A stretch of 64,000 bases of DNA from Bacteroidales bacterium (GTDB taxonomy: Bacteria > Bacteroidota > Bacteroidia > Bacteroidales > Paludibacteraceae), in contig JAAYQF010000093.1 of NCBI GenBank assembly GCA_012519425.1, positions 43,151 through 107,150 on the forward strand, given 5' to 3'. Positions 26,471 to 55,026 of this stretch are shown in pieces (the first letter of the stretch is position 1; every line of letters starts with the position of its first letter). A model generated the notes under the pieces. It did not search any database. It saw only the letters and a list, made by a program, of their open reading frames with translations, and was not told where the DNA came from. The position numbers were made by a program, and so were the translations under genes.

Positions 26471-26531
26471 AAACATACTGTTTAGGGTTGTTATGGACTA
26501 ATTTTGCATCTTTTTAGACAAAAATTAAATA
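26471..26531 (+). promoter_or_regulatory. Conserved promoter/leader copy 1 (AAACATACTGTTT palindrome + TAATTTTG + conserved leader)
   Basis: 38-bp stretch tggactaattttgcatctttttagacaaaaattaaata (26494-26531) identical to 39209-39246; palindrome AAACA-N3-TGTTT 16 bp upstream of -7 box in both. Confidence 0.85.
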
Positions 26532-26593
26532 CTTACAGTGAAAAAATCGCTTGATTTGTATGTTGTGATTTAAACTCGTTCTAAAAATTCAGT

Positions 26594-29500
26594 TTGTATA
26601 AAATGAAACATCTAATTACCAAAACGCTGATTGGAAGTGTTTTACTTTTGTCTTTCAACATTTCTATTGCTCAAAAAGCTAATCCGGCCGGTCTCCCCGA
26701 CGAACGAACCATCCGGGAAGTTGAACCCGTTGAAGTACGTTGCCCTGTGGGTAATGTACCTCGACTTCCCTACCAAGTGTGGGTAACTTATGCTCACGGG
26801 AAATCAGAATACAGGCAGGTAAAATGGACAAACGCAGCACGGCAGACAGAAGAAAATCAGGCTGACCCGGCTACTCATCCTGTAGGTACCAACTACACTA
26901 TTACAGGCTTTATTTTGGGAGATAACACAACTGACAACGGATACCCCATAACCGCCGGGGTTGAAGTAGTTGCGGATCCGGCCGAGACTCCGGCACCTTG
27001 TCCCGTTGCAAGCACGTTCCCACTAAACAAAGTGCAACTAATTGGTGACAACAGACTTACCTGCAACAGGGAACTTGCCATACAGGAAATTATCAGCTGG
27101 GATGTGTCTCAGCAATTATATAATTACAGAGACACGTACGGACTCAGTACTGATGGATATCTCCGGGCCGATGGATGGGACTCCCCTACCACCAAGCTCA
27201 AAGGACACGGCTCGGGACATTATATGTCAGCCTTAGCCCTGGCATTTGCATCCGCCACCCGGGTTGAACAAAAAAATGCCTTACGCGTTAATATGACCCG
27301 CATGGTCAACGAATTACGTGAATGTCAGGAAAGAACATTCGTATGGAACGAAGAGCTGGGCAGATATTGGGAAGCCCGTGATTTTGCACCGGAAGAAGAA
27401 TTACGTGCAATGCAAGGGACATGGGCGGATTTTGATGTTTACAAAACCGAGTGGGAAAAGTACGGTTATGGATATCTCAATGCCATTCCTGCACAACACG
27501 CTGCCCTGATTGAAATGTACCGCGCTTACAATAATGAAAGCTGGGTATGGGCGCCCTATTATTCCATCCACAAGCAGTTAGCGGGATTGATAGACATCGC
27601 AACTTATATAGATGATAAAGCCATAGCAGACAAAGCTTTGCTTGTAGCTAAGGATATGGGATTGTGGATATGGAATCGTTTGCATTACAGAACATTTGTT
27701 CAAACTGAAGGCAGTCAGGAAGAGCGCAGGTCAAAGCCCGGCAACCGCTTTGAAATGTGGAATATGTATATTGCCGGAGAAGACGGAGGTACAGGAGAAT
27801 CCTTAGCCCGTCTTTCTGAAATGGTGAGCGACCCGACAGAAAAAGCACGTCTGCTTGAAGCATCCAATTTCTTCGACAGTCCTGCTTTTTATGATCCGCT
27901 GGCAAGAAACATCGACGACATAAGAACAAGGCATGCCAACCAACACATTCCGAAAATCATCAGCGCCTTACGCAGCTATATAGGCAATGAAAATCCTTAT
28001 TATTATCAACTTTCCCGAAACTTTTGGGAGATGATACAAGGGCGTTACCGCTATGCTTCCGGTGGAGTTGGCAACGGAGAAATGTTCAGGCAACCCTACA
28101 CCCAAATGATCAGCATGATCACTAACGGTTCACCCACCCTGAACGAAACCTGTTGTGCTTATAATTTAGCTAAGCTTACCAAAGATTTGAATACCTTTGA
28201 CCCGGATGATGCGCGCTATATGGATTACTATGAGCGTCTGCTTTACAACCAAATTATTGGTTCCTTGCATCCCACACACTATATGACCACCTATCAATAT
28301 GCTGTGGGACTGAATGCATCCAAGCCCTGGGGTAACAGAACACCACAATCCACTTGCTGCGGAGGTACGGGTTCGGAGAGTCATACCAAATACCAGGAGG
28401 CAGCCTATTTCTTCAACGACAGTACCCTTTGGGTGAGCTTGTACTTGCCGACCACTCTTGAGTGGGACAACAAAGGTATCAGTTTGCAGCAGGATTGTGA
28501 GTGGCCTGCCGAGAAATCAACTATCAGACTTACTTCGGGTGCAGCCCGTTTTGCCATGAAGTTACGCGTTCCCTATTGGGCAACGGAAGGGTTTGATATC
28601 AGGCTCAACGGTACTTCTATTGCCAACAGCTACCGCCCAAGCTCTTACGTAAGCATCCCTGCACGCAATTGGGCTCACCATGATGTGGTAGAAGTTATCA
28701 TGCCCTTCAGCAAACACATAGATTACGGCCCTGACAAACCGGAGAACCGGGGATCGGAAACCGATACCGATAAAGCAACCTCATCTAACTTATGGATGGG
28801 CACTCTGATGTACGGACCTTTGGCCATGACTGCTACAGGTGTTGAAAACTGGGAGGAAGCCACTCTCACGGTTGATTCTTATTTAAACAATATCATAGCC
28901 AATGGTTCTGACGGCTCCAAAGGAACCCATGGAAATTTATACACCCTGTCAGTTGGTGATAAAACTTTTGAACCTGATTATTACAGAGATGAGAATTCTA
29001 CGCATTATTTCCGCATCGATGTGGTCAGCGACATGAAAGCTGAATTCAGAGCCATGCTTGCAAAGAAAATAGAAGATGCAGGTGTATTCCAGTCCAAAAC
29101 CTATACACGATCATCTTATAAGATATTAAAGAAAGTACTGAAAGATGCAAAGAAAATATGTAAAAACGAGTTATCCACACAGAACCAAATCACCAGTCAA
29201 ATAGCCCTTATTGAACAGGCACAAAACGATTTGATAACAAAAAGAATTAATAAATCAACACTGACTGCAACCATACAGGCAGCCGCAGCCAAAAAAGAAA
29301 AAGATTATACCTGGGATAACTACGGAGTGCTTCAAAGGTCTATTGAAAGAGCTTACGAAATAGAACAACAAAATGAATCTCAACTGTTGATAGACAAACA
29401 AATACTGACCTTGCAAAAAGACATGGAGGCCCTGGTATTGGTCAGCAGTGTCGATAAAAACGCCTTAAAAGAAGTGTTGTCCGTTGCCCAAGAAAGAATT

Positions 29501-29902
29501 AAAGAGCAGGAAGCCTGGAACCAACTCAGTGTGAAGGTTCCTGAATATGCTCCCTGGGCACCCCATGCGTTCAGGCGTCTGGTATGGGAAGTTCCGAAAG
29601 CTCAGGATATCTATGAAAATAAAGACAGGAACTACACCCAGGGCGAGGTCAACACCACAGTATCTGCATTGAATGCAACCATCAATACCATGCGTCCCGG
29701 CAATCTACCGGAGCCTGAAGATTTATATCCTCTGAGAACATTACTGAGACAAGCAGGCCGTTTGCTGCCAAACGAGAAAACCCCGAAGATTGCCGAAGCA
29801 ATCGAATATGCACAGATGGTGGTTGATTACGTGAATGATGGCAGCGGCACACACGATATGATCGAAAATGCCACTTCAAAATTGAGGGAAGCAATGAAAT
29901 AA
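26594..29902 (+). CDS. GH127/GH146-like beta-L-arabinofuranosidase (DUF1680 type) with C-terminal helical repeats
   Basis: KLKGHGSGHYMSALALAFASA, PYYSIHKQLAGLID, NETCCAYNLAKL and STCCGGTGSESHTK (Cys/Glu cluster). Confidence 0.85.
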   Translation: MYKMKHLITKTLIGSVLLLSFNISIAQKANPAGLPDERTIREVEPVEVRCPVGNVPRLPYQVWVTYAHGKSEYRQVKWTNAARQTEENQADPATHPVGTNYTITGFILGDNTTDNGYPITAGVEVVADPAETPAPCPVASTFPLNKVQLIGDNRLTCNRELAIQEIISWDVSQQLYNYRDTYGLSTDGYLRADGWDSPTTKLKGHGSGHYMSALALAFASATRVEQKNALRVNMTRMVNELRECQERTFVWNEELGRYWEARDFAPEEELRAMQGTWADFDVYKTEWEKYGYGYLNAIPAQHAALIEMYRAYNNESWVWAPYYSIHKQLAGLIDIATYIDDKAIADKALLVAKDMGLWIWNRLHYRTFVQTEGSQEERRSKPGNRFEMWNMYIAGEDGGTGESLARLSEMVSDPTEKARLLEASNFFDSPAFYDPLARNIDDIRTRHANQHIPKIISALRSYIGNENPYYYQLSRNFWEMIQGRYRYASGGVGNGEMFRQPYTQMISMITNGSPTLNETCCAYNLAKLTKDLNTFDPDDARYMDYYERLLYNQIIGSLHPTHYMTTYQYAVGLNASKPWGNRTPQSTCCGGTGSESHTKYQEAAYFFNDSTLWVSLYLPTTLEWDNKGISLQQDCEWPAEKSTIRLTSGAARFAMKLRVPYWATEGFDIRLNGTSIANSYRPSSYVSIPARNWAHHDVVEVIMPFSKHIDYGPDKPENRGSETDTDKATSSNLWMGTLMYGPLAMTATGVENWEEATLTVDSYLNNIIANGSDGSKGTHGNLYTLSVGDKTFEPDYYRDENSTHYFRIDVVSDMKAEFRAMLAKKIEDAGVFQSKTYTRSSYKILKKVLKDAKKICKNELSTQNQITSQIALIEQAQNDLITKRINKSTLTATIQAAAAKKEKDYTWDNYGVLQRSIERAYEIEQQNESQLLIDKQILTLQKDMEALVLVSSVDKNALKEVLSVAQERIKEQEAWNQLSVKVPEYAPWAPHAFRRLVWEVPKAQDIYENKDRNYTQGEVNTTVSALNATINTMRPGNLPEPEDLYPLRTLLRQAGRLLPNEKTPKIAEAIEYAQMVVDYVNDGSGTHDMIENATSKLREAMK

Positions 29903-29984
29903 CAAAGAACTGAGAAAAGACAATTTAACAGCACAACGTAACAATCAAAAAAATATCATTATCACAACTAATACATTAAAAAAC

Positions 29985-32579
29985 ATGAAACTTATTCGTT
30001 TACGCGTATTTTTTATCAGCATTTCATGCATGGTTCTCGGGCTTGGCCTTTTATCGGCACAAGCTACCGGGGCAACTGTAAATTTAGCCAGAATAACCGG
30101 TGTACAAGTATCTACATCCTTTGTCTCCGGATGGGAAAGTCTGGCAGCCATCAATGACGGATTTGAACCGAGTAGTTCGACCGACCGCAGTCATTCCATT
30201 TACGGGAACTGGAACGGTGAAGGTGATTACGGCAAATATAATTGGGTAGAATATGCATGGGACACACCCTGTCATATTGTTTCTGCATCCGTGTATTGGT
30301 TTACTGACTATGCAGGATTAGCTAAACCAACCGTTGCATACATCGAATATTGGGATGGAATGGAATGGGTACAGGTAAGTAATATCGGAACGGAGCTAAA
30401 CAAGTACAATACAATTTACACAGACATTAACGGATCTAAAATCCGTCTTTACATGAAAAGTGAGACTTCAACCGGCATCATTGAATTTAAAGTGATGGGT
30501 AATCGTATTACCGGTTGCGAACCGGATGCCATTAACACTTACATCATTGATGGAACTTCAAGAACAAAAATTAATTACGCCAGTGTAAAAACAGGAGAAA
30601 ACATCACTTTTAACCCGACAGTTACAGCACCTAATCCCTCAAGCGGACGCTGGAGATGGAAAGGTCCTGACAATTTCACATCCACCGCACAGACAGTAAC
30701 TCTAAAGAATCTGCAACCCCATCAAAGTGGTACTTATACCATTACCTATGTCAATGCTTGCGGTGCCACTTCTTCAGCTATTTACCATTTGACCGTGGCT
30801 GATAATTTTGATGGTTCAGCTTACAGCTGGCCTGCATACACACCCACTATCAATTACAATTTCCGACAAGAATTTCCTGATTTGGAAATGCCAACTGAGA
30901 ATTTAATTGACACAGAAGGTATAGCCTACACACAAAATGATCGCTGGTGGACATTTCACATGGGGAACAGACCAAAATCCGTTATCACCGAGATGGCTAT
31001 TACACCCATGTTGCAGCGCATGAATGAAGACTTCGCATACATCCGCGACGTTATGGGATGGCCACCCGATAAGCGTGTCAAAAGGGGGTATCGCAGCGCG
31101 ATTTACCTTTTAGGTTCCGGTATGGCTTTCGACGCATCCACGGACAGCACGCAATTGGGAGGATGGCAAGGTTCTATCTACCATAAAGGAGAAAATTGGC
31201 CCATGGTGTATTTATCTTATTATCCCGTATATTGTTTTGACCCGTCCTGCCCGTACACGGATAAAGATTATCAAACGGGAGGTGTAGTGCACGAAGGGAT
31301 ACATTCCGTTTTGGCCGACTTACCCGGATGTAGAAATGCCGCATGGTTCCACGAAGGTGGTAACACCTGGCTACAACAAGAGATGGAATCACGCCGTTCA
31401 AACAACTACGGTAGCATGGGATTCTTGAACGCAGGATCATATATCGCGCCCTTCATGCCCATCGAATGTTATTCCGGATGGTTGCAGGATGGCAGCTTTG
31501 GAGGTCCTTCGGCAGAAGGGGTCAATATGTATGATGGAGGCCAACAAATCTGTACATGGCGTAACCTTTTGGGAGGCGTTCAGTACTCCAACGCCTTTCC
31601 GGTGTTTTTAGCCAATACGCTGGGCGATGGTAGTGTTCCCTGGGTATGGCGTTATTGTGAAACACGCGTATTGGAAGGAATCGCCGACACCATAGGAAAC
31701 GAACAAATAAGAAGGTTGATCATGGAATACCGCGCCAAACAAGCTGTGGTTGATATGAAAAACTGGACCAACAGTATAAAGGTATTATTAAATAACAGTT
31801 TTGGAACCGGTATTGGTGCAGAATGGTCTCCGTACTGGAAAAATCCGAGTACCTGGTCAGCTACACCCTATGTTAAAACTGTGTATCAAAACGGCACCCT
31901 GATACCGGAACAAAGAACCACCCCGGGCTGGTCGGGCGGCAACCAAATTCCTTTGCGTGTGGATGCACAGGCAGATGAAATAAGCCTTGAATTTATTCCG
32001 TTAGGAGAAAATATGTCATTACAATTATGCTATCGCACCCGACAAGGAGAAATAGTATATAGCCAACCTGTATTTTGTGGTGAATGTAAACTCAAAATGG
32101 ACCCAAACAAACGTCCTTCCAATGATGTAGTATTCGCTGTGGTCAGCAATCTGAATTATGTATATGAGGGTGAAGTTACCCGCAAAGCCCACTACGACTA
32201 CCGTATAAATATAAAGAAAGGTATAACACACCTGGCTTCAATTGATAAAAGATGGTTCAATTGGGAAAACGACATCGTGGACCAAACGGCTATTCCTGTT
32301 TCACCAACCGCAATACAAAATTTCGTTGTGGAAGAAATGGATGCCAAAATATATCCGAATCCTTTAGTAGCGGATACACCACTAAAAATTGAACTAAAAA
32401 ACATTCCAAATACTCCCATCATGGTGGAAGTCAGCAGTGTAAACGGACAGTGCATTTATAAACAAACCATTCAGTCCGGAGAATTCACCTTGCCGAACGA
32501 ACTGTTCAGCAACGGAATGTATATACTTACTTTGAACAACAGTAATCACATCATTACAAAAAAAATAATAGTGCAATAA
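29985..32579 (+). CDS. Secreted gluzincin-like putative metallopeptidase with discoidin-like, Ig-like and T9SS domains
   Basis: GGVVHEGIHSVLADLPGCRNAAWFHEGGNTWLQQEM (HExxH plus downstream E); C-term IMVEVSSVNGQCIYKQ...GMYILTLNNSNHIITKKIIVQ. Confidence 0.75.
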   Translation: MKLIRLRVFFISISCMVLGLGLLSAQATGATVNLARITGVQVSTSFVSGWESLAAINDGFEPSSSTDRSHSIYGNWNGEGDYGKYNWVEYAWDTPCHIVSASVYWFTDYAGLAKPTVAYIEYWDGMEWVQVSNIGTELNKYNTIYTDINGSKIRLYMKSETSTGIIEFKVMGNRITGCEPDAINTYIIDGTSRTKINYASVKTGENITFNPTVTAPNPSSGRWRWKGPDNFTSTAQTVTLKNLQPHQSGTYTITYVNACGATSSAIYHLTVADNFDGSAYSWPAYTPTINYNFRQEFPDLEMPTENLIDTEGIAYTQNDRWWTFHMGNRPKSVITEMAITPMLQRMNEDFAYIRDVMGWPPDKRVKRGYRSAIYLLGSGMAFDASTDSTQLGGWQGSIYHKGENWPMVYLSYYPVYCFDPSCPYTDKDYQTGGVVHEGIHSVLADLPGCRNAAWFHEGGNTWLQQEMESRRSNNYGSMGFLNAGSYIAPFMPIECYSGWLQDGSFGGPSAEGVNMYDGGQQICTWRNLLGGVQYSNAFPVFLANTLGDGSVPWVWRYCETRVLEGIADTIGNEQIRRLIMEYRAKQAVVDMKNWTNSIKVLLNNSFGTGIGAEWSPYWKNPSTWSATPYVKTVYQNGTLIPEQRTTPGWSGGNQIPLRVDAQADEISLEFIPLGENMSLQLCYRTRQGEIVYSQPVFCGECKLKMDPNKRPSNDVVFAVVSNLNYVYEGEVTRKAHYDYRINIKKGITHLASIDKRWFNWENDIVDQTAIPVSPTAIQNFVVEEMDAKIYPNPLVADTPLKIELKNIPNTPIMVEVSSVNGQCIYKQTIQSGEFTLPNELFSNGMYILTLNNSNHIITKKIIVQ

Positions 32580-32608
32580 ATAATCATTCATAACAATATT
32601 CAACACCC

Positions 32609-34849
32609 ATGAGAAAGCTATTGTTTTTTATCCTACTTATATCTCTGCCGGGTTTCGTATCAACAGAAAACCTGGCGGAGCTATACAAGCGTGCGGATAA
32701 TTTCCGGGTCAGGTATGACAGCTTATACAAGAATAAAATACTTGCCGTTAACCCTATTCCGGCAAGCAACGACTTTTGGTACCTGATTGAAACATCCGGG
32801 GGCACCGAGTTTTTCCTGGTAAAAACTGAACAGGGACAAGCCGGGCCTGCCTTCGACCAGGAACGTTTGGCAACGGAACTGAAGAATTCTTTTGGAAAGG
32901 ACAAAATTGAACCCTTTGCATTGCCTTTCAGAAATATCAGCTACAACAAAAACATGGACACGCTTTTCTTCAGCCTGGACAACGAAAGGTATCAATGCTC
33001 CTTGTCCGATTATCAAATTACCAAAAGGGGAAGAGAAAACACCCGAAGTGTGAGTAACGAATATTGGGGGCGATTCAACCGCGCTGACGGAACCGGCAGG
33101 GTCAGTTCACCCGACAAAGCGTACGAAGCCTATATTTCAGAAGGCAATTTGTGGGTTCATCACATAAATTCCAACACAAAAAAACAGCTGAGTTTTGATG
33201 GAACCACGGCCGACTATTATTCCTCCGAAATATTTTGGTCACCGGATTCAAAAAAGATCGTTTGCTGTAAATTTCGTCCGGGAGGAGAGAGAAAATTATT
33301 GTTGATAGCCTCCTCACCCGGAGATCAATTACAACCCAAAACGGAAACTTACGACTATGCCAAGCCCGGAGACGCACTACCCATCAGACGTCCTGTATTA
33401 TTTCATGTAGAAGAAGAGCAGAGTTATGCTTTTGAATTTCCGGGCATAGAACAACAATACAGTCTGGGACGTATTCGTTGGAACGAGGCATCAACAGCTT
33501 TCACTTTCCACTTCAACCGCAGGGGACACCGGCAATACACCATCTATGAAGGGAATACAGAAGGGACACTCAAGACATTGATTGATGAGCGCAGCAATAC
33601 CTTCATTTATTACAATGCGATTTACGACTACCGCATGAAAAACAGCGATGAAATACTTTGGATTTCTGAACGAGACGGATGGAGGCATACATATTTGTAC
33701 GACACGAGCGGAAATGTGAAAAAACAAATCACAAGTGGAGAATGGGTGGTAAAATCCGTTGTTCATGTAGATGAAGAAAAACGGGAATTAATTATCAAAG
33801 CTTGCGGACGTGATAAGAAGGAAGATCCCTATTTGGAGAAATATTATCGCGTTCATATTGACACAAGGAAGATAACGGCTCTTACTCCTGAAAACGGTAA
33901 TCATCAGGTTAAATTCAACGATGACTACACCTATATGAGTGATATCTGCTCGCGTGTGGATGCCGCTCCTGTTTTGGTAATCCGCTCAGCCGTTGACGGA
34001 AAAATATGCTATAAACCGGAACTACAGCCTGATATCAGTTCTATGCTTGCTGCAGGATGGACCCCGCCCGAAGTGTTCTCCTCCAAAGGACGAGACGGGA
34101 AAACTGATATTTGGGGCATAATCATTCGCCCATCTCACTTTGACCCCGACAAAGAATACCCTGTGATTGAGTACATCTATGCCGGTCCGCACGACTCTCA
34201 TGTACCCAAGTCATTTGGCATCAACCATTGGGGCAATGAATTGGCAGAACTTGGCTTTATTGTAGTACGAATAGACGGGATGGGTACGTTCAATCGTTCC
34301 AAAGCCTTTCATGATGTCTGTTGGAAAAATCTCAAAGATGCCGGCTTTCCCGACCGGATTGCCTGGATACGTGCCGCAGCAAAAAAATACCCACAAATGA
34401 ATATAGAAAAAGTGGGCATTTACGGAAGTTCAGCCGGTGGACAAAATGCCATGGGCGCTTTACTCTTCCATCCTGATTTTTACAAGGTTGCAGTATCTTC
34501 CTGCGGATGCCATGATAACCGCATGGACAAAATCTGGTGGAATGAACAATGGATGGGCTACCCCATCGGGAAAGAATACGAAGCCAGCTCCAACGTAGTA
34601 AATGCACATTTACTGCAAGGACAACTCATGCTGATCCTGGGCGAGTTGGACAACAATGTCGATCCGTCATCCACGCTGCAGGTAGTCAATGAGTTGATTA
34701 AACATGATAAAGAATTTGAATTTGTAATGCTCCCCAATGAGCGACACACCATAGGTGGCAAGTATGGCGAACGCAAAAGGCGTGATTTCTTCATGCAACA
34801 CTTGAAAGGCGTGACCATACCTAACTGGAACGAGAAGGAAACTCCTTGA
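32609..34849 (+). CDS. S9 family prolyl peptidase, DPP-IV-like
   Basis: DPPIV_N propeller followed by KVGIYGSSAGGQNAMGALLFHPDFYKVAVSSCGCHDNRMDKIWWNEQWMGYP; GELDNNVDPSSTLQVVNELIKHDKEFEFVMLPNERHTIG. Confidence 0.9.
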   Translation: MRKLLFFILLISLPGFVSTENLAELYKRADNFRVRYDSLYKNKILAVNPIPASNDFWYLIETSGGTEFFLVKTEQGQAGPAFDQERLATELKNSFGKDKIEPFALPFRNISYNKNMDTLFFSLDNERYQCSLSDYQITKRGRENTRSVSNEYWGRFNRADGTGRVSSPDKAYEAYISEGNLWVHHINSNTKKQLSFDGTTADYYSSEIFWSPDSKKIVCCKFRPGGERKLLLIASSPGDQLQPKTETYDYAKPGDALPIRRPVLFHVEEEQSYAFEFPGIEQQYSLGRIRWNEASTAFTFHFNRRGHRQYTIYEGNTEGTLKTLIDERSNTFIYYNAIYDYRMKNSDEILWISERDGWRHTYLYDTSGNVKKQITSGEWVVKSVVHVDEEKRELIIKACGRDKKEDPYLEKYYRVHIDTRKITALTPENGNHQVKFNDDYTYMSDICSRVDAAPVLVIRSAVDGKICYKPELQPDISSMLAAGWTPPEVFSSKGRDGKTDIWGIIIRPSHFDPDKEYPVIEYIYAGPHDSHVPKSFGINHWGNELAELGFIVVRIDGMGTFNRSKAFHDVCWKNLKDAGFPDRIAWIRAAAKKYPQMNIEKVGIYGSSAGGQNAMGALLFHPDFYKVAVSSCGCHDNRMDKIWWNEQWMGYPIGKEYEASSNVVNAHLLQGQLMLILGELDNNVDPSSTLQVVNELIKHDKEFEFVMLPNERHTIGGKYGERKRRDFFMQHLKGVTIPNWNEKETP

Positions 34850-34850
34850 A

Positions 34851-37800
34851 TTACACCTCCTCTTGATGCAAGTTCTGCTGAATAAATTCCATGGGCTTTA
34901 ATCCGAACTGTTTCTGGAAGCATTTACTGAAATAGGAAGGATTGCTGAAGCCCACCATATAGGCAACTTCATTGATCCTGTATTCCTTTTTCAGCAGATA
35001 GGTGGCGGCTTTCTTTAAACGTATCAGTTGCAACAATTCGTTGGGAGTGAGTCCGGTCAAACTTTTAATTTTTCCAAATAAGCCCGAGCGACTGATGCCC
35101 AATTCCTGCACCAACTGATCGATATTAAAATCTTCGTTGGCGATGTTCTGCTCCAGAATTTCGTGGGTCTTAGATAAAAACGCTTCGTCAGCCGGATTCC
35201 CGGCAATGGTCTTGATGGGCACAAATGGTAATTCGGAATACTTTTTCCTGAGCATTTCCCGGGAATCAATCAGATTCTTAACCTTAGCTTGCAAATAAGA
35301 CATAGAAAAAGGTTTTTCTATATAAGAATCTGCCCCCACATTCATCCCATCCATTTTGGAATCGACATCAGTTTTGGCAGTCAATAACACAAAAGGAATA
35401 TGCGACCACAACATACTGGTTTTTACCTCATTGCACAATTCCAAACCATCCATGTTGGGCATCATCAAATCACTGACGATAATATTGACTTCACTGGTCT
35501 GCAAAATTTTCAACGCTTCCAGACCATCAGAAGCAGTCAGGACTATAAAATTATCAGCAAAGCTGTCGCGCAAAAAATCCAGCATTTCCGGACTGTCCTC
35601 CACAATCAACACCACCTCAGCATCTTGCTCAACCTCCGTTACCTGGTCTGACACAGCTTGCACCTTATCTTCATTGTCAACAAAGACAAACCCGGCATCT
35701 TTTACCAACACACCGTCATTACCGATACTTACAGCCTGTTGCTGTCTTACCGGTAACTTGACAGTAAACACAACTCCCGAAGGATAGGCATCCGCTACTT
35801 CTATGCTTCCGGAATGCGCTTCCACCAAACTCTTGACTAAAGAAAGTCCCAAACCTGTACCTTCCTTTTTGGTACTTTGCACCTGATAGAAAGGCTGAAA
35901 AATCTTTTCCTGATCGGCAGGTGAAATCCCCGGACCATTATTGGAGATACTTATGGTAAAAAAATCTTTTTCTCTATCCAATCCACAAGATAAGTGTATT
36001 TGTCCTTTGGTAAATTTAATGGCATTGGTAAACAAATTACTGAGGATTTTTATCAATGCATCCTGATCTACTTCAGCTTCGAATTTTTTATCAGGGCAGT
36101 GCAAGGTAAAATTGATAAGGCGCTGTTCCATTGCAGGCTTGAAGCTATCCGCCACATTACACAGAAGGTTGAAAATATTATGGGTAGAAAACTGCATTTT
36201 CATCACTCCCTGGTCAGCTTTTCTAAAATCAAGCAGTTGATTAACCAGTTGCAGCAAGCGTTTGCTGTTTCTCTCAATGATATGAAAGTCACGTGCGACT
36301 AAATCAGGAAGTTGATCTGCCGCATATATTATTTTTTCGATAGGACCCATGATCAATGAAACCGGTGTTCTGATCTCATGAGCGATCATGGTGAAAAAAC
36401 TTATTTTAGCGTCGTACAGTTCTTTTTCCTTTTCCTGCTCTATCTGTCGAATGCGTTCCTTTTGCTTTTTCTCTGTCCGTTTCAAACTATACCTGATGAC
36501 GAGTACAAGAATGGCAACAAAGAGAATTAAATAGAACACTTTAAATCCCTTACTTAACCAGAACGGAGGATGTATTACCACAGCCAGGCTGGTTATCCTG
36601 TCTTCATTCCAAATACCGTCACTGTCAGAAGATTTGACTTTGAACATGTAATCACCGGGAGGCAAATTCGTATAGGTTGCCCTATTCGTTCCACCGACAT
36701 CATTCCACTCCTTGTCAAACCCTTCCAACATATACGCATAGTTGATTTTTTCAGGGGATGTATAACTCAAGGCAGCAAAATTGATGGTGAAAACATTTTG
36801 CAAATGACTCAAATCAACCCTTTGTGCAAAAACAGGAGATTGTTTTAGAAAACCCTTTCCTTTTTTGTCTTTAGATACGGGAAGTGGCTTATTAAACACT
36901 TCTATGTCTGTCACAACCACATCCGGCTTGAATATATTGACTTCAAAATCTTTGGGATCAAACGCATTAAATCCATTAGCCGTACCAATATAAATTTTAC
37001 CCCGACTACTTTTAAATCCGGAATTAACAATGAATTGTTCGCTCACCAAACCATCACTTTTTGTAAAAAAATAATTTTTATGCAAGGCATTGTCAACATG
37101 TATCAATCCCTTGGTAGTGGTCAACCAAAAAGAGCCTTCATCATCTTCTATGATACACTGGACATTGACATTGACGTTGACATCGTTTAATACAAAAGGA
37201 ATAAAGCCATCGTTTTTATAATCAAACTGACAGAGGCCGTTGGTGGTTGCAAGCCAAAGCTGCCCTTTGGAATCACAAAGCATACTGTTGACCGTATTAG
37301 ACAACAAAGCGCCTCCGGCTAATGAATCACTCACCGTATAATGTCGCCATTGATTGGTATGCGGATTCAATCTGTACACACCTTTACCCAAGGTTGCAAA
37401 CCATATCCAGTCTTTTTTGTCTTGCACGATGCTGATCGTTGTGATGTTGGTCTGCATAACTCGTTTAAATTGCCGCTTACTTCTTTCATACACGTTAATG
37501 CCACTCATGGTCCCAACCCACATTTGCTTGTTTTTATCCTTGAAAATGGCATAGATGCTTCTGTCCAAAGTGGTTTCATCATCCGACACGTGGTTATGAT
37601 GGCTAAACAAGCCGGTTTTAGTATGCAAAATATTGAGTCCTCCCGAGTAGGTTCCTATCCACAAATCATCATCATCCCAACACAGGGCATGTACGTTGTG
37701 ATAAGAAAGACTGTTTTTCCCCTTTTCGGGCATATAAGATTTGAACAGCCCCGTTTTTATGTTTAGCATATTTAAGCCTCCATCATCAGAGGCTATCCAG

Positions 37801-38909
37801 ATATTTCCATGCACATCTTCCGTAAAACCTGCAATCACATTGCCATTCACTGAATTTTGATATTGTGAATGTGAATACCTTTCAAAAAAACTGCTATTCG
37901 GAGACAGATAATTGACCCCACCAAAATAAGTACCTACCCAAATACCACCCTCACGGTCTTTCATAATCGGATAGATGAATTTATCCGACAGAGAGGTAGG
38001 ATCAATTTCATTGGACACAAACAATTGGTGGTCGCCGGTTTGAGTATTGAACAAACTGAGTCCGTCATCAGAACCTATCAACAGCATTCCGGGTTCATAT
38101 TCACAAATATCGTGTACGTGCAATATGCCGCCCGGACGATCAGCAGCAAGATAGATATTCAAACTATTATCTTGCCTGTTAAACCTGCAAATTCCTTTGT
38201 CCCAGGTTCCTAGCCAAAGCTCATGCCGGGAGTCTTCGAAAATGGAATAGATGGATATTTCATGCGATTTTTTAATATGACATACTACAAAACAATTTTC
38301 CGAAGCATCAAATGTGATGAGTGGTATATCTTGCGATCTGGGTGCTGCCCAGATCTGATTCGTTTTATCGACATAGATATGATTTACGATATCAAAATCA
38401 CTTGACGTACGTCCGTCAAAAATAACCCTATACTGTACCAATTCATTGGTGGAGGGATGATATCGAAAGATACCCTGACCACGTGTTGCAATCCACACAT
38501 TACCCAATTGATCTTCTACCATGTTGTTAACGTGGGTGCTGATGCCTACTCCGTCAGCTTCACCTTCAAACTTACGCATTGACTCATAAAGGGGATCAAA
38601 AATATAAACACCATTGTCCGCAGCAACCCATATCTCTCCACTGCTGTGCTCTAACAAATGGGTTATTACACCACCAAACATCAATTTGGAAGCATATTCG
38701 GGTGTTAAAAAATTCTTAAATTTTATTCCGTCAAAACGGACCAAACCTCCATCCGTGCCTATCCACACAAACCCATATCTATCCTGGATGATACTGTTGA
38801 CATTATTGGAAGCTAATCCTTGTTCCACTTTATAATGGCGGAAACTAAAAGATACAGCCTGCAAATCTGAAAAACAGATGCAGATGAATATCCAAAGGAG
38901 GAATCTCAT
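34851..38909 (-). CDS. Hybrid two-component system sensor/regulator (HTCS)
   Basis: Reg_prop propeller repeats, Y_Y_Y, HisKA (FFTMIAHEIRTPVSLIMGPIEKI), HATPase, receiver (VSDLMMPNMDGLEL), AraC HTH. Start placed at MRFLLWIFICICF (38909) rather than 39191. Confidence 0.9.
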   Translation of the reverse strand: MRFLLWIFICICFSDLQAVSFSFRHYKVEQGLASNNVNSIIQDRYGFVWIGTDGGLVRFDGIKFKNFLTPEYASKLMFGGVITHLLEHSSGEIWVAADNGVYIFDPLYESMRKFEGEADGVGISTHVNNMVEDQLGNVWIATRGQGIFRYHPSTNELVQYRVIFDGRTSSDFDIVNHIYVDKTNQIWAAPRSQDIPLITFDASENCFVVCHIKKSHEISIYSIFEDSRHELWLGTWDKGICRFNRQDNSLNIYLAADRPGGILHVHDICEYEPGMLLIGSDDGLSLFNTQTGDHQLFVSNEIDPTSLSDKFIYPIMKDREGGIWVGTYFGGVNYLSPNSSFFERYSHSQYQNSVNGNVIAGFTEDVHGNIWIASDDGGLNMLNIKTGLFKSYMPEKGKNSLSYHNVHALCWDDDDLWIGTYSGGLNILHTKTGLFSHHNHVSDDETTLDRSIYAIFKDKNKQMWVGTMSGINVYERSKRQFKRVMQTNITTISIVQDKKDWIWFATLGKGVYRLNPHTNQWRHYTVSDSLAGGALLSNTVNSMLCDSKGQLWLATTNGLCQFDYKNDGFIPFVLNDVNVNVNVQCIIEDDEGSFWLTTTKGLIHVDNALHKNYFFTKSDGLVSEQFIVNSGFKSSRGKIYIGTANGFNAFDPKDFEVNIFKPDVVVTDIEVFNKPLPVSKDKKGKGFLKQSPVFAQRVDLSHLQNVFTINFAALSYTSPEKINYAYMLEGFDKEWNDVGGTNRATYTNLPPGDYMFKVKSSDSDGIWNEDRITSLAVVIHPPFWLSKGFKVFYLILFVAILVLVIRYSLKRTEKKQKERIRQIEQEKEKELYDAKISFFTMIAHEIRTPVSLIMGPIEKIIYAADQLPDLVARDFHIIERNSKRLLQLVNQLLDFRKADQGVMKMQFSTHNIFNLLCNVADSFKPAMEQRLINFTLHCPDKKFEAEVDQDALIKILSNLFTNAIKFTKGQIHLSCGLDREKDFFTISISNNGPGISPADQEKIFQPFYQVQSTKKEGTGLGLSLVKSLVEAHSGSIEVADAYPSGVVFTVKLPVRQQQAVSIGNDGVLVKDAGFVFVDNEDKVQAVSDQVTEVEQDAEVVLIVEDSPEMLDFLRDSFADNFIVLTASDGLEALKILQTSEVNIIVSDLMMPNMDGLELCNEVKTSMLWSHIPFVLLTAKTDVDSKMDGMNVGADSYIEKPFSMSYLQAKVKNLIDSREMLRKKYSELPFVPIKTIAGNPADEAFLSKTHEILEQNIANEDFNIDQLVQELGISRSGLFGKIKSLTGLTPNELLQLIRLKKAATYLLKKEYRINEVAYMVGFSNPSYFSKCFQKQFGLKPMEFIQQNLHQEEV

Positions 38910-39185
38910 TTTTTTTTGAAGCAATATGAGGTCTCTTAGTCGCATTTTGATGAAGTTACTTGCTTTCTTTTTATACAAATTGAGGCACAATAATACAAAA
39001 TTATATACAAATTGTTCTACCCAATCATCAAAATTGATCCAATTCCTCCGTAATAATGCACGATTATTTTTTGTGAAATCTACAAATTTTCCTGTTTGAC
39101 CCTTATTGTGCATATTAATAAATTTATGTAACCTTGAGTTTTTTTCACATTTACTCACTTTAATAAGGATGTCAGCAATGCTACT

Positions 39186-39246
39186 AAACACAGTGTTTGG
39201 GGCTTTCGTGGACTAATTTTGCATCTTTTTAGACAAAAATTAAATA
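39186..39246 (+). promoter_or_regulatory. Conserved promoter/leader copy 2 (AAACACAGTGTTT palindrome + TAATTTTG + conserved leader)
   Basis: 38-bp identity with 26494-26531; similarity extends on both sides (CATTTACTCA upstream, CGCTTGNTTTGTATNTTGTNATT downstream). Confidence 0.85.
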
Positions 39247-39311
39247 TTTACAACAAAAAAAACGCTTGCTTTGTATATTGTAATTCAGGCTCATTTTAAA
39301 TACTTGGTTTC

Positions 39312-40544
39312 ATGAAAAGCAACTTGGTTATCATTATTCATATCTTCATATGCTCATTTTTTGCATCACACTTACAGGCAAGTGATCGGGTTGATTCACC
39401 TGAAGAAGATTTTTTAAGTCTTGCAGCCACCCCTCCCATGGGATGGAATAGCTGGAACAAGTTTGGTTGTAACGTCAATGAAGATTTGATCAAGGAAATG
39501 GCAGATGCCATGGTTTCATCAGGTATGAAAGACGCCGGCTACACTTATATTGTCATCGACGATTGCTGGCAAGTTGATCGTGACCAGGATGGTTTCATTG
39601 TTCCGGATCCTGAACACTTTCCTTCCGGTATCAAGGCGTTGGCTGACTACATACACGGTAAAGGTTTAAAGCTGGGGATCTATTCATGTGCGGGTAGCTT
39701 AACCTGCCAGGCACGTCCGGGAAGTCGCGGACATGAATTTCAGGATGCCAGACAGTATGCAGAGTGGGGCGTTGACTTTCTTAAATATGATTGGTGCTAC
39801 AATGAAGGTCGCAATGCTGAAGCTGCCTATAAAATTATGAGCGATGCACTTAAAGCTTGCGGACGCCCCATCGTATTAAGTATTTGTGAATGGGGAGAAA
39901 ATGAGCCGTGGAAATGGGGAAAAGGTGTAGGGCATATGTGGCGTGTTACACCGGATATTCGGGATTGTTTCGATTGTCTGTTTGATTGGGGAGGCGTTGT
40001 GGTATTGAATATTATAGATGTCATGGCAGATTTGTATCCTTACGCAGGTCCCGGACATTGGAACGATGCTGAAATGCTTGAAGTCGGAAATGGCGGCATG
40101 AGCAAAGATGAATATATCTCCCACTTCTCAATGTGGTCTATGCTGGCTGCGCCCTTAATGGCTGGTAACGACTTGCGCAAAATGGACCAGGAGACCATTG
40201 AAATTTTGACTAACAAAGAAGTAATAGCCGTCAATCAGGATAAATTGGGAAAACAAGCTGTCAGATTCATGGACATGGGTGATCATGAAATTTGGGCAAA
40301 GCCATTGAGTGATGCTGAAATTGCTGTTTGCTTTTTAAACAGGTCGCTCCAGGAGTGGAATCTGGATTATGACTGGAAGAAACAGACCATGTATTTTGCA
40401 AGAGATATCAATATTCACAAATACGAGTACGATATCAGGGATTTGTGGAAACACAAACAAATCGGAACTACCGGTCGAAACACAAAAACTACCATTCCAC
40501 CGCATGGATGTTTGATGGTAAAACTCAGTAAGAAAAATAAATAA
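39312..40544 (+). CDS. GH27 alpha-galactosidase
   Basis: ATPPMGWNSWNKFGCNVNEDLIKEMADAMVSSGMKDAGYTYIVIDDCWQ; WGVDFLKYDWC; GPGHWNDAEMLEVGNGGM. Confidence 0.95.
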   Translation: MKSNLVIIIHIFICSFFASHLQASDRVDSPEEDFLSLAATPPMGWNSWNKFGCNVNEDLIKEMADAMVSSGMKDAGYTYIVIDDCWQVDRDQDGFIVPDPEHFPSGIKALADYIHGKGLKLGIYSCAGSLTCQARPGSRGHEFQDARQYAEWGVDFLKYDWCYNEGRNAEAAYKIMSDALKACGRPIVLSICEWGENEPWKWGKGVGHMWRVTPDIRDCFDCLFDWGGVVVLNIIDVMADLYPYAGPGHWNDAEMLEVGNGGMSKDEYISHFSMWSMLAAPLMAGNDLRKMDQETIEILTNKEVIAVNQDKLGKQAVRFMDMGDHEIWAKPLSDAEIAVCFLNRSLQEWNLDYDWKKQTMYFARDINIHKYEYDIRDLWKHKQIGTTGRNTKTTIPPHGCLMVKLSKKNK

Positions 40545-40610
40545 TTACATTAAACTATATTATATCAATCATTTAAATTTATTAGTTTCTAATCTCAAAT
40601 TTATAGTAAT

Positions 40611-43600
40611 ATGAATAGAACGCAGAATAAAAATGGCAAGCGGACTTCAAAGTACTTGGTCCTTCTTGCGAGTATTTTGTTTTTGATGGGTTCTGTGAAT
40701 GTTGACGCATTTGCAAGCAATCATACGCTTGCTGACTACAATCAACTAACAGAGCAGCAATCATCAGGGTTCACTGTAACCGGACTGGTTACCGACCAGC
40801 AGGGAGAAACCATGATTGGTGTCAGTATATTGGAAAAAGGCACTTCGAATGGTACTATCACCCAGGCAAACGGACGGTTCAGCTTACAAGTTGAAAGCGC
40901 CAACTCTGTCTTGGTGTTTTCATATATCGGTTATGCAAAACAAGAAATTACGGTTGGCAATGTTCGTGACTTGAAAGTTGTACTGGCTGTAGAAGCAAAA
41001 GAAGTGGACGAAGTTGTGGTTATCGGCTATGGTACACAGCGCAAAGGTGATATTACCAGTGCCGTTGCCAGTGTCAAAGCTGAAGATTTCTCCGTAGGTA
41101 AAATCGGAGATGCAGCCGAATTGGTGAAAGGAAAAATTGCAGGCCTGAGCATCACCAAATCTTCCGGAGACCCCAACGCCACGTCAAGTATTATGTTACG
41201 CGGTATTACTACCATTATCGGTAGTGTTTCCCCATTGGTTTTGGTTGACGGAGTGGAAGGATCACTCACAACGGTTGCACCTGAAAACATCGCAGCTATC
41301 GATGTATTAAAGGATGCTTCCGCAGCAGCAATTTACGGTACACGCGGTGCTAACGGGGTGATTATCATCACAACGAAAAGTGGACAAAGGGAAAGCAGAG
41401 CCAATGTCACCTATCACGCTTACGGTTCTTTGACCAATTGGTACAAAAAAGCCGAATTCATGGATACAAGAGATGTGATCTTTGCACGCACAAATTTCCC
41501 ATATGACGGATATAACACAGATTGGTTGGATGCCGTTACCCGTAAGATGGGACATGCACAAAATCATTCTATCAGTATAGACGGGGGCACAAAATCAGCA
41601 ACCTATTCTGCCAACATCACTTACAGTGACGAAGCAGGCATTATGCGTAAGAGCGACAGGCGTGATTTAAAAGCTCATATCGACTTGAATCAATATGCCT
41701 TAAATGACATATTGAAATTTAACATCAACCTGTTATATGGCACACACGGCAATACCAACAACCAAAACGCATATGTGTATCGCCAGGCTTTGATCCACAA
41801 CCCTTCTTCTCCTCTTTTTAATCCTGACGGAAGCTATTACGAGGAGTTCAGTCGCTTTCAGTACTACAATCCTTTGGCTATACAAAACGAGTTGATCGGC
41901 AACACCCGTTCAAGTTATACACGTTTAACCGGTAACATTACTTTAGAACCCATCAGGGGTTGGCAAACCAACCTAATGATGTCCATGAGAAAAGGGGAAT
42001 CAACTTCTCAAAATTATTACACCAGTAAATTTTATTCTCAAGCCGTTGGAAAGATCCGGGGTAGTGCATCTCAATCAGCAGGAAACAACAGAAGTGATAA
42101 TTTGGAAATCACCTCACAATACAAATTTGATATAGATAGAAATCATTTCACAGCTTTAGCGGGATACAGCTATTTATACAATGTGTATGACGGTTTTAAT
42201 GCCGGTAACTCCAACTTTCCTTCTGAATCTTATTTATATAATAATCTTTATCAGGGAACTTATTTGACGGACGATGATCATGTTGCCAGTATGGGTTCAT
42301 ACAAAAACGACAACACCTTGATCGGATTTTTCGGGCGTGTGAGCTATGGGTTTGACAACAGATACAACCTGATGTTAAGTTTCCGTCGTGAAGGTTCTTC
42401 AAAATTCGGTGAGAACAACAAATGGGGTTCTTTCCCGTCAGCTTCTGCCGGCTGGACCATCAGCAATGAAGAATTTATGAGGGATTTGCTATGGATCAAC
42501 AATTTGAAACTACGCGCAGGCTACGGAGTAACAGGTATCATCCCTAATGCATCATACGCATCGTTGGTAACCTACGATTACGATGTATGGGGCAAGCACC
42601 TGAGCAAAGACGGCGTTTGGAGTCCCTCGCTCAGAGTAGCCCAAAATCCTAACCCTAACCTGAAATGGGAGAAGACCAGTGAATGGAACGTAGGTATTGA
42701 CTGGTCAATTCTAAACTCACGTTTAGGCGGTGCTGTGGATGTGTATTCAAAAACAACGGTGGACTTATTGTATTACTACAACGTTCCCGTTCCACCCAAT
42801 ATGTACGGACAAACTTTAGCAAACGTTGGTCAAATGCGTAATAACGGTATAGAATTCTTATTGAACGCTATCCCTGTACAAACCCGTGACTTTACCTGGA
42901 AAACAACCTTGACCTTGTCGCATAACAGCAACAAGCTGCTTAGCTTATCCAATGAATTATACGAAACCAGAAACTTCAACGAAACCGGTGGAGTAAGTGA
43001 TCCTATTTCAGTACCGACACACTGTATGGAAGTCGGTCACCGTCTCGGTGATTTCTGGGGATTAAAATCAGCAGGTGTAAGCGAAAACGGTTTTGTTTTG
43101 GTTGAAGTTTCCGACAACGCCGGCGGATGGGTTTTAAAAGAATTTGACACCAAATACAACGAGGAGAAAAACCGTCAACGCCTGGGTAATGGTTTGCCGC
43201 AATTATATGCCGGCTGGAACAACCAACTCAGTTACAAGAACTTTGATCTTAACCTGCAGTTTACCGGTCAATTCGGATACAAAATCCTGAACGTTCAGAG
43301 ATCATTCTACGAAAACAATTCTATTGCATATAACAGACTGAAAACAGCAGATAAGGAATACGGAGCAATTGATACAGATGGTAAACCTGTAATTGATCCG
43401 GCAACCGGAACTCAAAAGATGGTGAAACTTTCTGCTGCCATGTCCCAAGGTATATGGAGTAATCAAATTGAAGATGGTGATTTTCTTAAATTAACCCATG
43501 CCACTTTAGGATACAATGTAAACCTAAAGGGTGAGACACTTAAATACATCAATAATTTAAGGATATATGTTTCAGGACAGAACTTATTCTGTATTACCAA

Positions 43601-43715
43601 ATACACCGGACTTGATCCCGAGGTATCCAACTACTTCATGGCACCCGGTATAGACGACCGCGACAAATATCCAACCATCCGTTCATTTACGATGGGACTT
43701 TCTATTAACTTCTAA
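40611..43715 (+). CDS. SusC/RagA TonB-dependent receptor
   Basis: Carboxypeptidase-D-like domain FTVTGLVTDQQGETMIGVSILEKGTSNGTITQANGRF; TonB/plug VVIGYGTQRKGDITSAVASV; AAAIYGTRGANGVIIITTKSG. Confidence 0.95.
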   Translation: MNRTQNKNGKRTSKYLVLLASILFLMGSVNVDAFASNHTLADYNQLTEQQSSGFTVTGLVTDQQGETMIGVSILEKGTSNGTITQANGRFSLQVESANSVLVFSYIGYAKQEITVGNVRDLKVVLAVEAKEVDEVVVIGYGTQRKGDITSAVASVKAEDFSVGKIGDAAELVKGKIAGLSITKSSGDPNATSSIMLRGITTIIGSVSPLVLVDGVEGSLTTVAPENIAAIDVLKDASAAAIYGTRGANGVIIITTKSGQRESRANVTYHAYGSLTNWYKKAEFMDTRDVIFARTNFPYDGYNTDWLDAVTRKMGHAQNHSISIDGGTKSATYSANITYSDEAGIMRKSDRRDLKAHIDLNQYALNDILKFNINLLYGTHGNTNNQNAYVYRQALIHNPSSPLFNPDGSYYEEFSRFQYYNPLAIQNELIGNTRSSYTRLTGNITLEPIRGWQTNLMMSMRKGESTSQNYYTSKFYSQAVGKIRGSASQSAGNNRSDNLEITSQYKFDIDRNHFTALAGYSYLYNVYDGFNAGNSNFPSESYLYNNLYQGTYLTDDDHVASMGSYKNDNTLIGFFGRVSYGFDNRYNLMLSFRREGSSKFGENNKWGSFPSASAGWTISNEEFMRDLLWINNLKLRAGYGVTGIIPNASYASLVTYDYDVWGKHLSKDGVWSPSLRVAQNPNPNLKWEKTSEWNVGIDWSILNSRLGGAVDVYSKTTVDLLYYYNVPVPPNMYGQTLANVGQMRNNGIEFLLNAIPVQTRDFTWKTTLTLSHNSNKLLSLSNELYETRNFNETGGVSDPISVPTHCMEVGHRLGDFWGLKSAGVSENGFVLVEVSDNAGGWVLKEFDTKYNEEKNRQRLGNGLPQLYAGWNNQLSYKNFDLNLQFTGQFGYKILNVQRSFYENNSIAYNRLKTADKEYGAIDTDGKPVIDPATGTQKMVKLSAAMSQGIWSNQIEDGDFLKLTHATLGYNVNLKGETLKYINNLRIYVSGQNLFCITKYTGLDPEVSNYFMAPGIDDRDKYPTIRSFTMGLSINF

Positions 43716-43727
43716 ATACAACAAATT

Positions 43728-45428
43728 ATGAAACTACTTAAAAAAACAGCTATATTTCTGATAAGTTCCTTTTTGTTGTTAGGAGCTTGCACTGATTTGA
43801 CAGAAAATGTTTATGATACATTAACAGATGCTACCATTGACGTAAATGACCCTGAAATTATCGGCTACATGATGGGAGAAGCTTATGCACAATTCCGCTT
43901 CATGTACTGGGGATGGAATGGTTATTTTGATTTGATGGAAGAATGCAGTGACACTTATATGACACCCAAAAGGATCGGTATCGGTTGGGGTGACTTATAC
44001 ATCAACATGCACAAACACAGCTGGAATTCTACCCAAGGACACATACAGTCCCTGTGGCATTATGCCTACGTGGGCATCGGATATACCAACAAGTGCCTGG
44101 ATGTTTTACCTGAAACGGGACGAAACCAGGCTGAAATGCGTTTTTTAAGGGCGTTGAACTATTACGTCCTGCTGGATGCTTTCCGCAATGTACCTTTAGA
44201 AACAACTCAATTAGTTGAAGAGGGATATTTACCAAAACAAGTTTCCGCTGATTCAATTTTCAGATTCTGTGTCAGCGAACTTGAAGCTGTCAAAGATGAT
44301 CTCGGAACAGAAAAATATCACGGATATCCCAACAGATACGCGGCCAATATGGCATTGGCAAAACTGTACCTCAACTACAATGCTTATTTCAACAAAAATG
44401 ATGACTCATATTATGAAAAGGCTTTAGCAGAAGTAAATGAGGTAATTGACGAAGGTGGGTATACCCTGGCTCCAAATTATTTGGATAACTTCAAAGCGGA
44501 CATTTCAACTTCTCCTGAAGTAATCTTCGCATTACCCCTGGATAAAACAAATGCCGCACATAATTATTTGGTGAACAAATGCCTGGTTGGAGCAGGCGCT
44601 CAGGCATATGGTTATACGGGAGGCCCGTGGAATGGTAGTTGTGCAGTGCCACAATTTATAGAAAGTTATCATCCTGATGATAATCGTCTGAAGTACACCT
44701 GGACCGGCGGTGTTCAACGTTATGCTACCAAGGACGCGCAAGGCAACACCATACCACAATCCGGAGCGGATATACCTTTTGGAGCGGACGACTGGGCAGG
44801 ACAAGGTGTTTTGAACTACTCACTGAGGGTTCATTCCATCGACAATCCGGGTGCTTACCAGCAAGAAGGGTATCGCTTTGTAAAAAGTGAAATTGTAGCA
44901 GGCGATGCGGGTACTTACGGAAATGATGTTGCGTTCTTCAGATTGGCTGACGCCATGTTTATAAAAGCTGAGTGTTTGCTACGCCTGGGACGTGATGAGC
45001 AGGTAGCTGCCGATTTGATCACTGAAGTGCGCAAACGCTCTTTTGATGATGCAGCGAAAGCTAAACGAACCGTTGCAGAATTGAAAGGTGGTAGCAAATA
45101 TGCCTATGGGCATGAAGAGTACACCGGGGAAGGATATGCCAACTGGGACCCTGCAACTTTAATAAAAACCCATGAGGGTGGCGACGATATCATACTGGGC
45201 GGTTTGTTGGATGACTTAGCCTGGGAGTTCGTTGGCGAACACCACAGACGGCAGGATTTGGTCAGATTTAAAATGACCGACGGTCGCAATGTGTTCAACG
45301 GTAAATCCTGGTTCTGTAAAGATGCTACAGATGAGACCCATTGGGATTATTTCCCCATACCTAAATCGGCACTGGATGCAAATATTACTTTAGAACAGAA
45401 CGAAGGGTATGAAGGAAGAGCCCATTAA
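43728..45428 (+). CDS. SusD/RagB outer-membrane lipoprotein
   Basis: Lipobox LLGACTD; RFLRALNYYVLLDAFRNVPL; LDDLAWEFVGEHHRRQDLVRF. Confidence 0.95.
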   Translation: MKLLKKTAIFLISSFLLLGACTDLTENVYDTLTDATIDVNDPEIIGYMMGEAYAQFRFMYWGWNGYFDLMEECSDTYMTPKRIGIGWGDLYINMHKHSWNSTQGHIQSLWHYAYVGIGYTNKCLDVLPETGRNQAEMRFLRALNYYVLLDAFRNVPLETTQLVEEGYLPKQVSADSIFRFCVSELEAVKDDLGTEKYHGYPNRYAANMALAKLYLNYNAYFNKNDDSYYEKALAEVNEVIDEGGYTLAPNYLDNFKADISTSPEVIFALPLDKTNAAHNYLVNKCLVGAGAQAYGYTGGPWNGSCAVPQFIESYHPDDNRLKYTWTGGVQRYATKDAQGNTIPQSGADIPFGADDWAGQGVLNYSLRVHSIDNPGAYQQEGYRFVKSEIVAGDAGTYGNDVAFFRLADAMFIKAECLLRLGRDEQVAADLITEVRKRSFDDAAKAKRTVAELKGGSKYAYGHEEYTGEGYANWDPATLIKTHEGGDDIILGGLLDDLAWEFVGEHHRRQDLVRFKMTDGRNVFNGKSWFCKDATDETHWDYFPIPKSALDANITLEQNEGYEGRAH

Positions 45429-45504
45429 AAAATTAGTTATATATCTCTTTTATATAAAAATTCAAGAAACAGTTTTAACAAACAATTAAAATTTATTTAA
45501 AGCA

Positions 45505-46977: not shown

Positions 46978-46979
46978 TA

Positions 46980-49019: not shown

Positions 49020-49031
49020 TATCGTGGATAC

Positions 49032-50312: not shown

Positions 50313-50323
50313 ATCATAATTAT

Positions 50324-52456: not shown

Positions 52457-52607
52457 ATTTCCGTAACTCTAAAACTTATTGTATCATTGTATTCAAATTT
52501 AAATTTTAATAATAACAATATGAAGAAAGCATGCAATTCATTCTGAAACAGATCGTACATGCATTTGCAAACAGACTTCATACAAAATTCTAATAAATTA
52601 TTGACCT

Positions 52608-55007: not shown

Positions 55008-55026
55008 ATTAAATAAAACTGTTGCT

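What the first reader, a model, noticed from the sequence alone, without database searches (positions are those of the whole stretch)
26471..39246. Twin promoters: 38-bp identical core plus conserved palindrome and leader upstream of two PUL operons
tggactaattttgcatctttttagacaaaaattaaata is identical at 26494-26531 and 39209-39246, 12.7 kb apart, in front of the GH127 and GH27-SusC operons. Both have AAACA-N3-TGTTT (26471-26483; 39186-39198) 16 bp upstream of the TAATTTTG -7 box, and similarity continues into the 5' leader down to the start codons. The HTCS gene is divergent from copy 2, so this is a good candidate HTCS operator. The conserved leader downstream of the expected start site suggests a second, post-transcriptional element.
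Basis: partly seen in the sequence, partly recalled or inferred. Interest (0 to 1): 0.72.

Follow-up and report, generated by a model that had tools for sequence, protein, structure and literature searches.

The report
HTCS direct-repeat operator before two sugar-utilization operons

Summary
The 38-bp identity (26494-26531, 39209-39246) is real, and these are its only copies in the 2.39-Mb genome. Comparison with 80 loci encoding relatives of the HTCS (34854-38945, minus strand) shows the block is a direct repeat of two 16-bp half-sites 21 bp apart, TRGAYKATTTTTNYAT. About 80 intergenic sites carry it, upstream of HTCS, GH127, GH27, SusC and DUF6055 genes across Bacteroidales. This is the architecture predicted for HTCS operators in Bacteroides. 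The "-7 box" TAATTTTG is inside half-site 1. The real -7 box lies 57 bp downstream of the operator start (TTGATTTG 26551-26558; TTGCTTTG 39266-39273), where 44 of 77 related operators have TTTG at one exact offset. The "conserved leader" is mostly operator half 2 plus core promoter. The true leader is about 35-40 nt, no better conserved than the upstream flank, without notable RNA structure. AAACA-N3-TGTTT is not conserved in relatives. New member of a known kind. Extras: divergent operator pairs in relatives usually sit 61-64 bp apart; the window copies look like a promoter duplication. No binding or transcription data exist.

The parts
26494..26530 (+). HTCS operator, copy 1: half-site 1 26494-26509 TGGACTAATTTTGCAT, half-site 2 26515-26530 TAGACAAAAATTAAAT, 21-bp period
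   Evidence: Shared motif with relatives; 26.3 bits with a matrix built without the window, next best site in the window 12.1; sequence
39209..39245 (+). HTCS operator, copy 2: half-sites 39209-39224 and 39230-39245, identical to copy 1
26551..26558 (+). Predicted -7 box of the GH127 operon (TTGATTTG), 57 bp from operator start
   Evidence: TTTG at offset 61 in 44 of 77 operators against a mean of 0.59 at other offsets
39266..39273 (+). Predicted -7 box of the GH27-SusC operon (TTGCTTTG), 57 bp from operator start
38976..39041 (-). Weak candidate HTCS self-operator (half-sites TGGATCAATTTT starting at 39041 and TAGAACAATTTG starting at 39019, 22 bp apart) and its -7 box TCAATTTG 38983-38976
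   Evidence: Best pair on the HTCS side, 9.2 bits; only 10 of 383,760 tested placements in the window score as high; the half-site 2 to TTTG distance (40 bp) equals that of the two strong sites; relatives carry a strong site here
34854..38945 (-). HTCS: periplasmic Reg_prop/Y_Y_Y sensor, HisKA, HATPase, receiver, AraC-type HTH
   Evidence: Pfam; SHIP motif at residue 1181, HEIRTP and SDLMMP motifs
26603..34849 (+). Target operon 1: GH127-like, HEXXH protein with sorting tail, S9 dipeptidyl peptidase
39312..56673 (+). Target operon 2: GH27, SusC, SusD, DUF4859, DUF6055, CotH, GH43, GH127, GH43
   Evidence: gaps mostly under 160 bp and no further operator in the window
26471..26483 (+). AAACATACTGTTT palindrome, copy 1; function unsupported
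   Evidence: Not conserved in relatives; chance expectation 0.26 per window
39186..39198 (+). AAACACAGTGTTT palindrome, copy 2; function unsupported

Best explanation
The 38-bp block is the operator of the hybrid two-component regulator encoded between the two operons. It holds two same-direction half-sites 21 bp (two helical turns) apart, so two AraC-type HTH domains can sit on one face of the DNA. Shown by sequence comparison: the repeat, its conservation, its fixed place upstream of a -7 box, and its restriction to this HTCS clade and its gene set. Inferred: the phosphorylated HTCS binds it on sensing an oligosaccharide, and the downstream half-site abuts the -33 region, which has no TTTG, so that the bound regulator recruits RNA polymerase and turns on both operons together. 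The window pair shares about 170-190 bp and most likely arose by duplication of one promoter segment, with selection or gene conversion keeping the operator identical.
For: All five HTCS orthologs first examined (52-56% identity) are divergent from GH27 and have the repeat in the divergent region. A matrix iterated over 81 sequences (1.64 Mb) gives 84 hits above 15 bits, 80 of them intergenic although about 8% of the DNA is intergenic; column-permuted matrices give 0-3 intergenic hits, and spacing 21 gives 70 intergenic pairs against 0-5 at other spacings. The two half-sites of the matrix correlate at 0.80 at offset 21 and at most 0.21 at the other offsets tested. With the window left out of training, the two window sites score 26.3, the next 12.1, the best of 200 shuffles 18.8. 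Of 81 distinct sites, 13 precede HTCS or HTCS-like genes, 15+7 GH127, 9 SusC, 8 GH27, 6 DUF6055, 3 CotH. Fourteen loci of more distant HTCS paralogs (about 36-41% identity) have no hit above 13 bits. Literature: predicted HTCS motifs in Bacteroides are all direct repeats, mean distance 21 bp, e.g. 12-bp sites + 9-bp spacer or 16-bp sites + 5-bp spacer (PMC3878776). The -7 position is fixed. Flank identity about 70% against 38/38 in the core.
Against: No binding, TSS or expression data. Half-site 2 in the window (TAGACAAAAATTAAAT) departs from consensus in the T-run. The -7 boxes are TTGATTTG/TTGCTTTG rather than TAnnTTTG (though T is the commonest base at that position in the set, 42 of 77). 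Many loci lack a strong site, partly because contigs end, and partly in Prevotella loci with similar HTH domains. Relatives share ancestry, so sites are not independent.
Confidence: 0.9

Rival explanations
1. One reading: AAACA-N3-TGTTT is the HTCS operator, TAATTTTG the -7 box, and the rest of the block is initial transcript and leader.
For: The palindrome arms are identical in both copies while the centre differs; TAATTTTG matches TAnnTTTG.
Against: Of 79 operators scored, only the two window sites have the exact palindrome within 45 bp upstream and one other is within one mismatch. TAATTTTG falls in a repeated half-site, and its counterpart 21 bp downstream is the same motif in relatives. 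TTTG enrichment at offset 61 marks the promoter. HTCS motifs in the literature are direct repeats.
Confidence: 0.04
2. The block is the operator of another regulator (for example the AraC-type protein at 17937-18794 or a global regulator), not the HTCS.
For: AraC-family proteins also bind direct repeats; one is encoded about 8 kb from copy 1.
Against: The sites were found beside this HTCS clade in many genera, a dozen of them in front of the HTCS gene itself, and none beside 14 paralogous HTCS loci. No Cur/Crp-like palindrome lies in either promoter at up to 3 mismatches.
Confidence: 0.05
3. The leaders carry a second, post-transcriptional element (sRNA target or folded RNA).
For: Similarity extends past the -7 box into the leader (25 of 37 positions).
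Against: Similar identity to the upstream flank; no Rfam match in the window; folding no better than shuffles; the predicted 35-40-nt leader is close to the B. thetaiotaomicron median of 32 nt (PMC7366714). Leaders of relatives were not aligned to each other.
Confidence: 0.05
4. The block is a dispersed repeat or mobile-element end.
For: Two near-identical copies 12.7 kb apart.
Against: Only two genomic copies; flanks about 70% identical on both sides, no sharp ends; in relatives the motif sits in front of PUL genes.
Confidence: 0.01

Closest known systems
Predicted HTCS operators of Bacteroides thetaiotaomicron (HTCS_Rgu-1, HTCS_Rgu-2, HTCS_Man; Ravcheev et al. 2013, PMC3878776)
   Same: Two direct-repeat sites about 21 bp apart upstream of PUL operons, assigned to AraC-type HTCS; HTCS_Rgu-1 has 12-bp sites + 9-bp spacer, HTCS_Man 16-bp sites + 5-bp spacer
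   Different: Probably a different HTCS clade (orthology to a B. thetaiotaomicron HTCS was not established). The motif letters could not be compared because the published logos are figures or supplements. Autoregulatory sites and a fixed operator to -7 distance are described here for this clade; I did not find them stated in the text read
BT4124 / BT4663 HTCS binding to bt4114 / bt4662 promoters (mBio 2024, PMC11253607)
   Same: HTCS with SHIP receiver motif (present here at residue 1181), AraC-type DNA-binding domain, susCD promoter as target
   Different: Those were tested by EMSA; nothing here has been tested
Sigma-ABfr promoter of Bacteroides (-33 TTTG, -7 TAnnTTTG; PMC7366714)
   Same: -7 box with TTTG core at a fixed place
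   Different: No -33 TTTG in the window copies; operator half-site 2 occupies the adjacent position, as expected of an activated promoter

Membership tests
HTCS operator (direct-repeat type) | Two same-orientation half-sites about 21 bp apart | tested here: met
   Half-site correlation 0.80 at offset 21; 70 intergenic pairs at 21 against 0-5 at other spacings
HTCS operator (direct-repeat type) | Upstream of PUL operons co-localized with the HTCS and conserved in genomes with its orthologs | tested here: met
HTCS operator (direct-repeat type) | Motif specific to the HTCS clade | tested here: met
   No hit above 13 bits in 14 paralogous HTCS loci; motif score correlates with HTH identity, Spearman 0.43, but also with sensor identity, 0.36
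HTCS operator (direct-repeat type) | Bound by the HTCS and needed for induction | not testable with these tools
   Needs EMSA and reporter assays
HTCS (regulator) | Periplasmic sensor, HisKA, HATPase, receiver and AraC-type HTH in one chain | tested here: met
   Pfam
Sigma-ABfr promoter | -7 TAnnTTTG | tested here: inconclusive
   TTTG at the position conserved in relatives, but the second base is T, not A
Sigma-ABfr promoter | -33 TTTG | tested here: not met
   No TTTG in 26527-26550 or 39242-39265
Cur/Crp-like site (wwwTATGTTnTAnAACATAwww) | Palindrome match | tested here: not met
   No match at up to 3 mismatches in either promoter

The most novel reading that the evidence does not exclude
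In this HTCS clade, divergent PUL promoters are built as a fixed module: two direct-repeat operators back to back with 5' ends 61-64 bp (about six helical turns) apart in 17 of 25 pairs, often one serving the HTCS gene itself. Two membrane-anchored HTCS dimers on one DNA face may switch both directions cooperatively. The window lineage would have broken this module (168 bp between the two sites), with a promoter-cassette duplication supplying a second operon with an identical operator.
Probability: 0.3. Interest if true: 0.55.

Novelty: new member of a known kind. Interest (0 to 1): 0.38.

Why it matters
It gives a specific, testable operator and promoter geometry for an HTCS clade found in Paludibacter, Bacteroides, Phocaeicola, Parabacteroides and Prevotella genomes. 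It names the regulon in the window (two operons, possibly the HTCS itself). It also shows how an A/T-rich half-site can mimic the Bacteroidetes -7 box and mislead promoter calls by about 50 bp.

Tried and rejected
BLAST of the 201-bp promoter against 200 family genomes gave only weak matches, so DNA similarity alone does not reach relatives; synteny through the HTCS did. An IUPAC scan of the own genome for looser operators gave 6 extra hits at 1-2 mismatches, near the 5 of the reversed-pattern control; the two best-scoring appear to lie in coding sequence, so no further regulon member is claimed. Cur/Crp palindrome: rejected. Rfam and RNA folding of the leaders: nothing. Alignment of the 62-bp spacers of divergent pairs showed no clear common element. 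No structure prediction was run because it would not decide DNA specificity.

Full report
Observation. The 38-mer is present exactly twice in the window and exactly twice in the 2.39-Mb genome at up to 3 mismatches. Around it the two promoters align over about 170-190 bp, with roughly 70% identity in the flanks and 38/38 in the core. The HTCS gene lies between the operons and reads away from copy 2; its likely start is ATG 38945, because the longer mechanical ORF from GTG 39191 runs through the intergenic region and relatives align only from about residue 8 of the 1364-aa form.

What the block is. The five closest HTCS relatives found in 200 genomes of the same family (52-56% identity) are all divergent from a GH27 gene, as in the window. 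Their divergent regions each hold GGAC/GGAT/AGAC cores exactly 21 bp apart, and so does the 38-bp core. A matrix started from these sites and iterated over 80 further loci from named genomes plus the window converged on TRGAYKATTTTTNYATNNNNNTRGAYKATTTTT. A YAT at offsets 34-36, outside the matrix, echoes the YAT at 13-15, so each half-site is about 16 bp and the operator spans 37 bp, almost exactly the identical block.

Controls. Eighty of 84 hits above 15 bits are intergenic, although intergenic DNA is about 8% of the total. Permuting the matrix columns leaves 0-3 intergenic hits; changing the half-site spacing leaves 0-5 intergenic pairs against 70 at 21 bp. With the window left out of training, its two sites score 26.3 bits and the next best position in 64 kb scores 12.1. 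Fourteen paralogous HTCS loci have nothing above 13 bits. The genes behind the sites are those of the window's own PUL: HTCS, two kinds of GH127, GH27, SusC, DUF6055, CotH, the S9 peptidase. Caveat: the genomes share ancestry and the matrix was fitted to these loci, so counts overstate independence; the left-out test and the -7 test below are the cleanest.

Where the promoter is. Downstream of 77 operators, TTTG occurs at offset 61 in 44 cases, against a mean of 0.59 at the other offsets from 33 to 110. TAnnTTTG peaks at 57. The window copies have TTGATTTG and TTGCTTTG at offset 57. The predicted starts (about 26562 and 39277, inferred) leave leaders of about 40 and 35 nt, near the 32-nt median of B. 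thetaiotaomicron (PMC7366714). There is no -33 TTTG; half-site 2 ends where the -33 region should begin, which fits a promoter that needs its activator (inference).

The leader and palindrome. Leader identity (25/37) is no higher than in the upstream flank (28 of 40 at best offset). There is no Rfam match and folding is no better than shuffles. The palindrome is absent near relatives' operators. Its presence in both copies is explained by shared descent of the promoter segment, although a lineage-specific factor cannot be excluded.

Mechanism. The HTCS has the sensor, kinase, receiver and AraC-type HTH domains and the SHIP motif that in B. thetaiotaomicron marks HTCSs whose DNA binding is held off until phosphorylation (PMC11253607). 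The likely sequence is: oligosaccharide bound in the periplasm, phosphorylation of the receiver, binding of two HTH domains to the 21-bp repeat, recruitment of RNA polymerase at both operons. All binding and activation steps are inferred.

Autoregulation and divergent pairs. In relatives, 13 distinct sites precede the HTCS gene or (two low-scoring cases) an HTCS-like gene. Divergent operators are 61-64 bp apart (5' ends) in 17 of 25 pairs, including pairs that do not involve the HTCS gene. In the window the HTCS-side site is weak and has 22-bp spacing, but the distance from half-site 2 to the TTTG of its -7 box is 40 bp as in the strong sites; it lies 168 bp from copy 2. This suggests the ancestral divergent module was disturbed, perhaps when the promoter segment was duplicated. 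The direction of duplication could not be determined.

Comparison with known systems. Ravcheev et al. 2013 (PMC3878776) predicted direct-repeat operators about 21 bp apart for 16 HTCSs of B. thetaiotaomicron. The present operator has the same architecture, here for an HTCS whose B. thetaiotaomicron counterpart, if any, I did not identify, so it is a new member of a known kind. Whether its letters match any of their logos could not be checked because figures and supplements are not held.

Noticed in passing
window 26603-56673: The regulon joins two HEXXH-containing secreted proteins (29985-32576 VHEGIH; 46980-49016 AHEIGH, DUF6055), an S9 dipeptidyl peptidase, two GH127, GH27 and GH43 enzymes. 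This suggests a locus for a plant arabinosylated glycoprotein (extensin or arabinogalactan-protein) rather than a bare polysaccharide.
   Followed up: partly
L029, L030, L031, L033, L034, L041, L078, L090, L098: Divergent HTCS operators back to back with 5' ends 61-64 bp apart, about six helical turns.
   Followed up: partly
window 57305-60772 and 61362-63998: Two adjacent large genes of repeated CY..MF.GCT.LT.AP.LPATTL units, apparently tandem paralogs of a surface repeat protein.
   Followed up: no
L085:1758, L071:221, L073:6840, L082:12061, L089:5588: In Prevotellaceae and Porphyromonadaceae loci the half-site becomes GGACGATTTTT (G instead of T after GGAC), and the site lies before DUF6055, CotH or HEXXH-protein genes, suggesting regulon reshuffling with motif drift.
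   Followed up: partly
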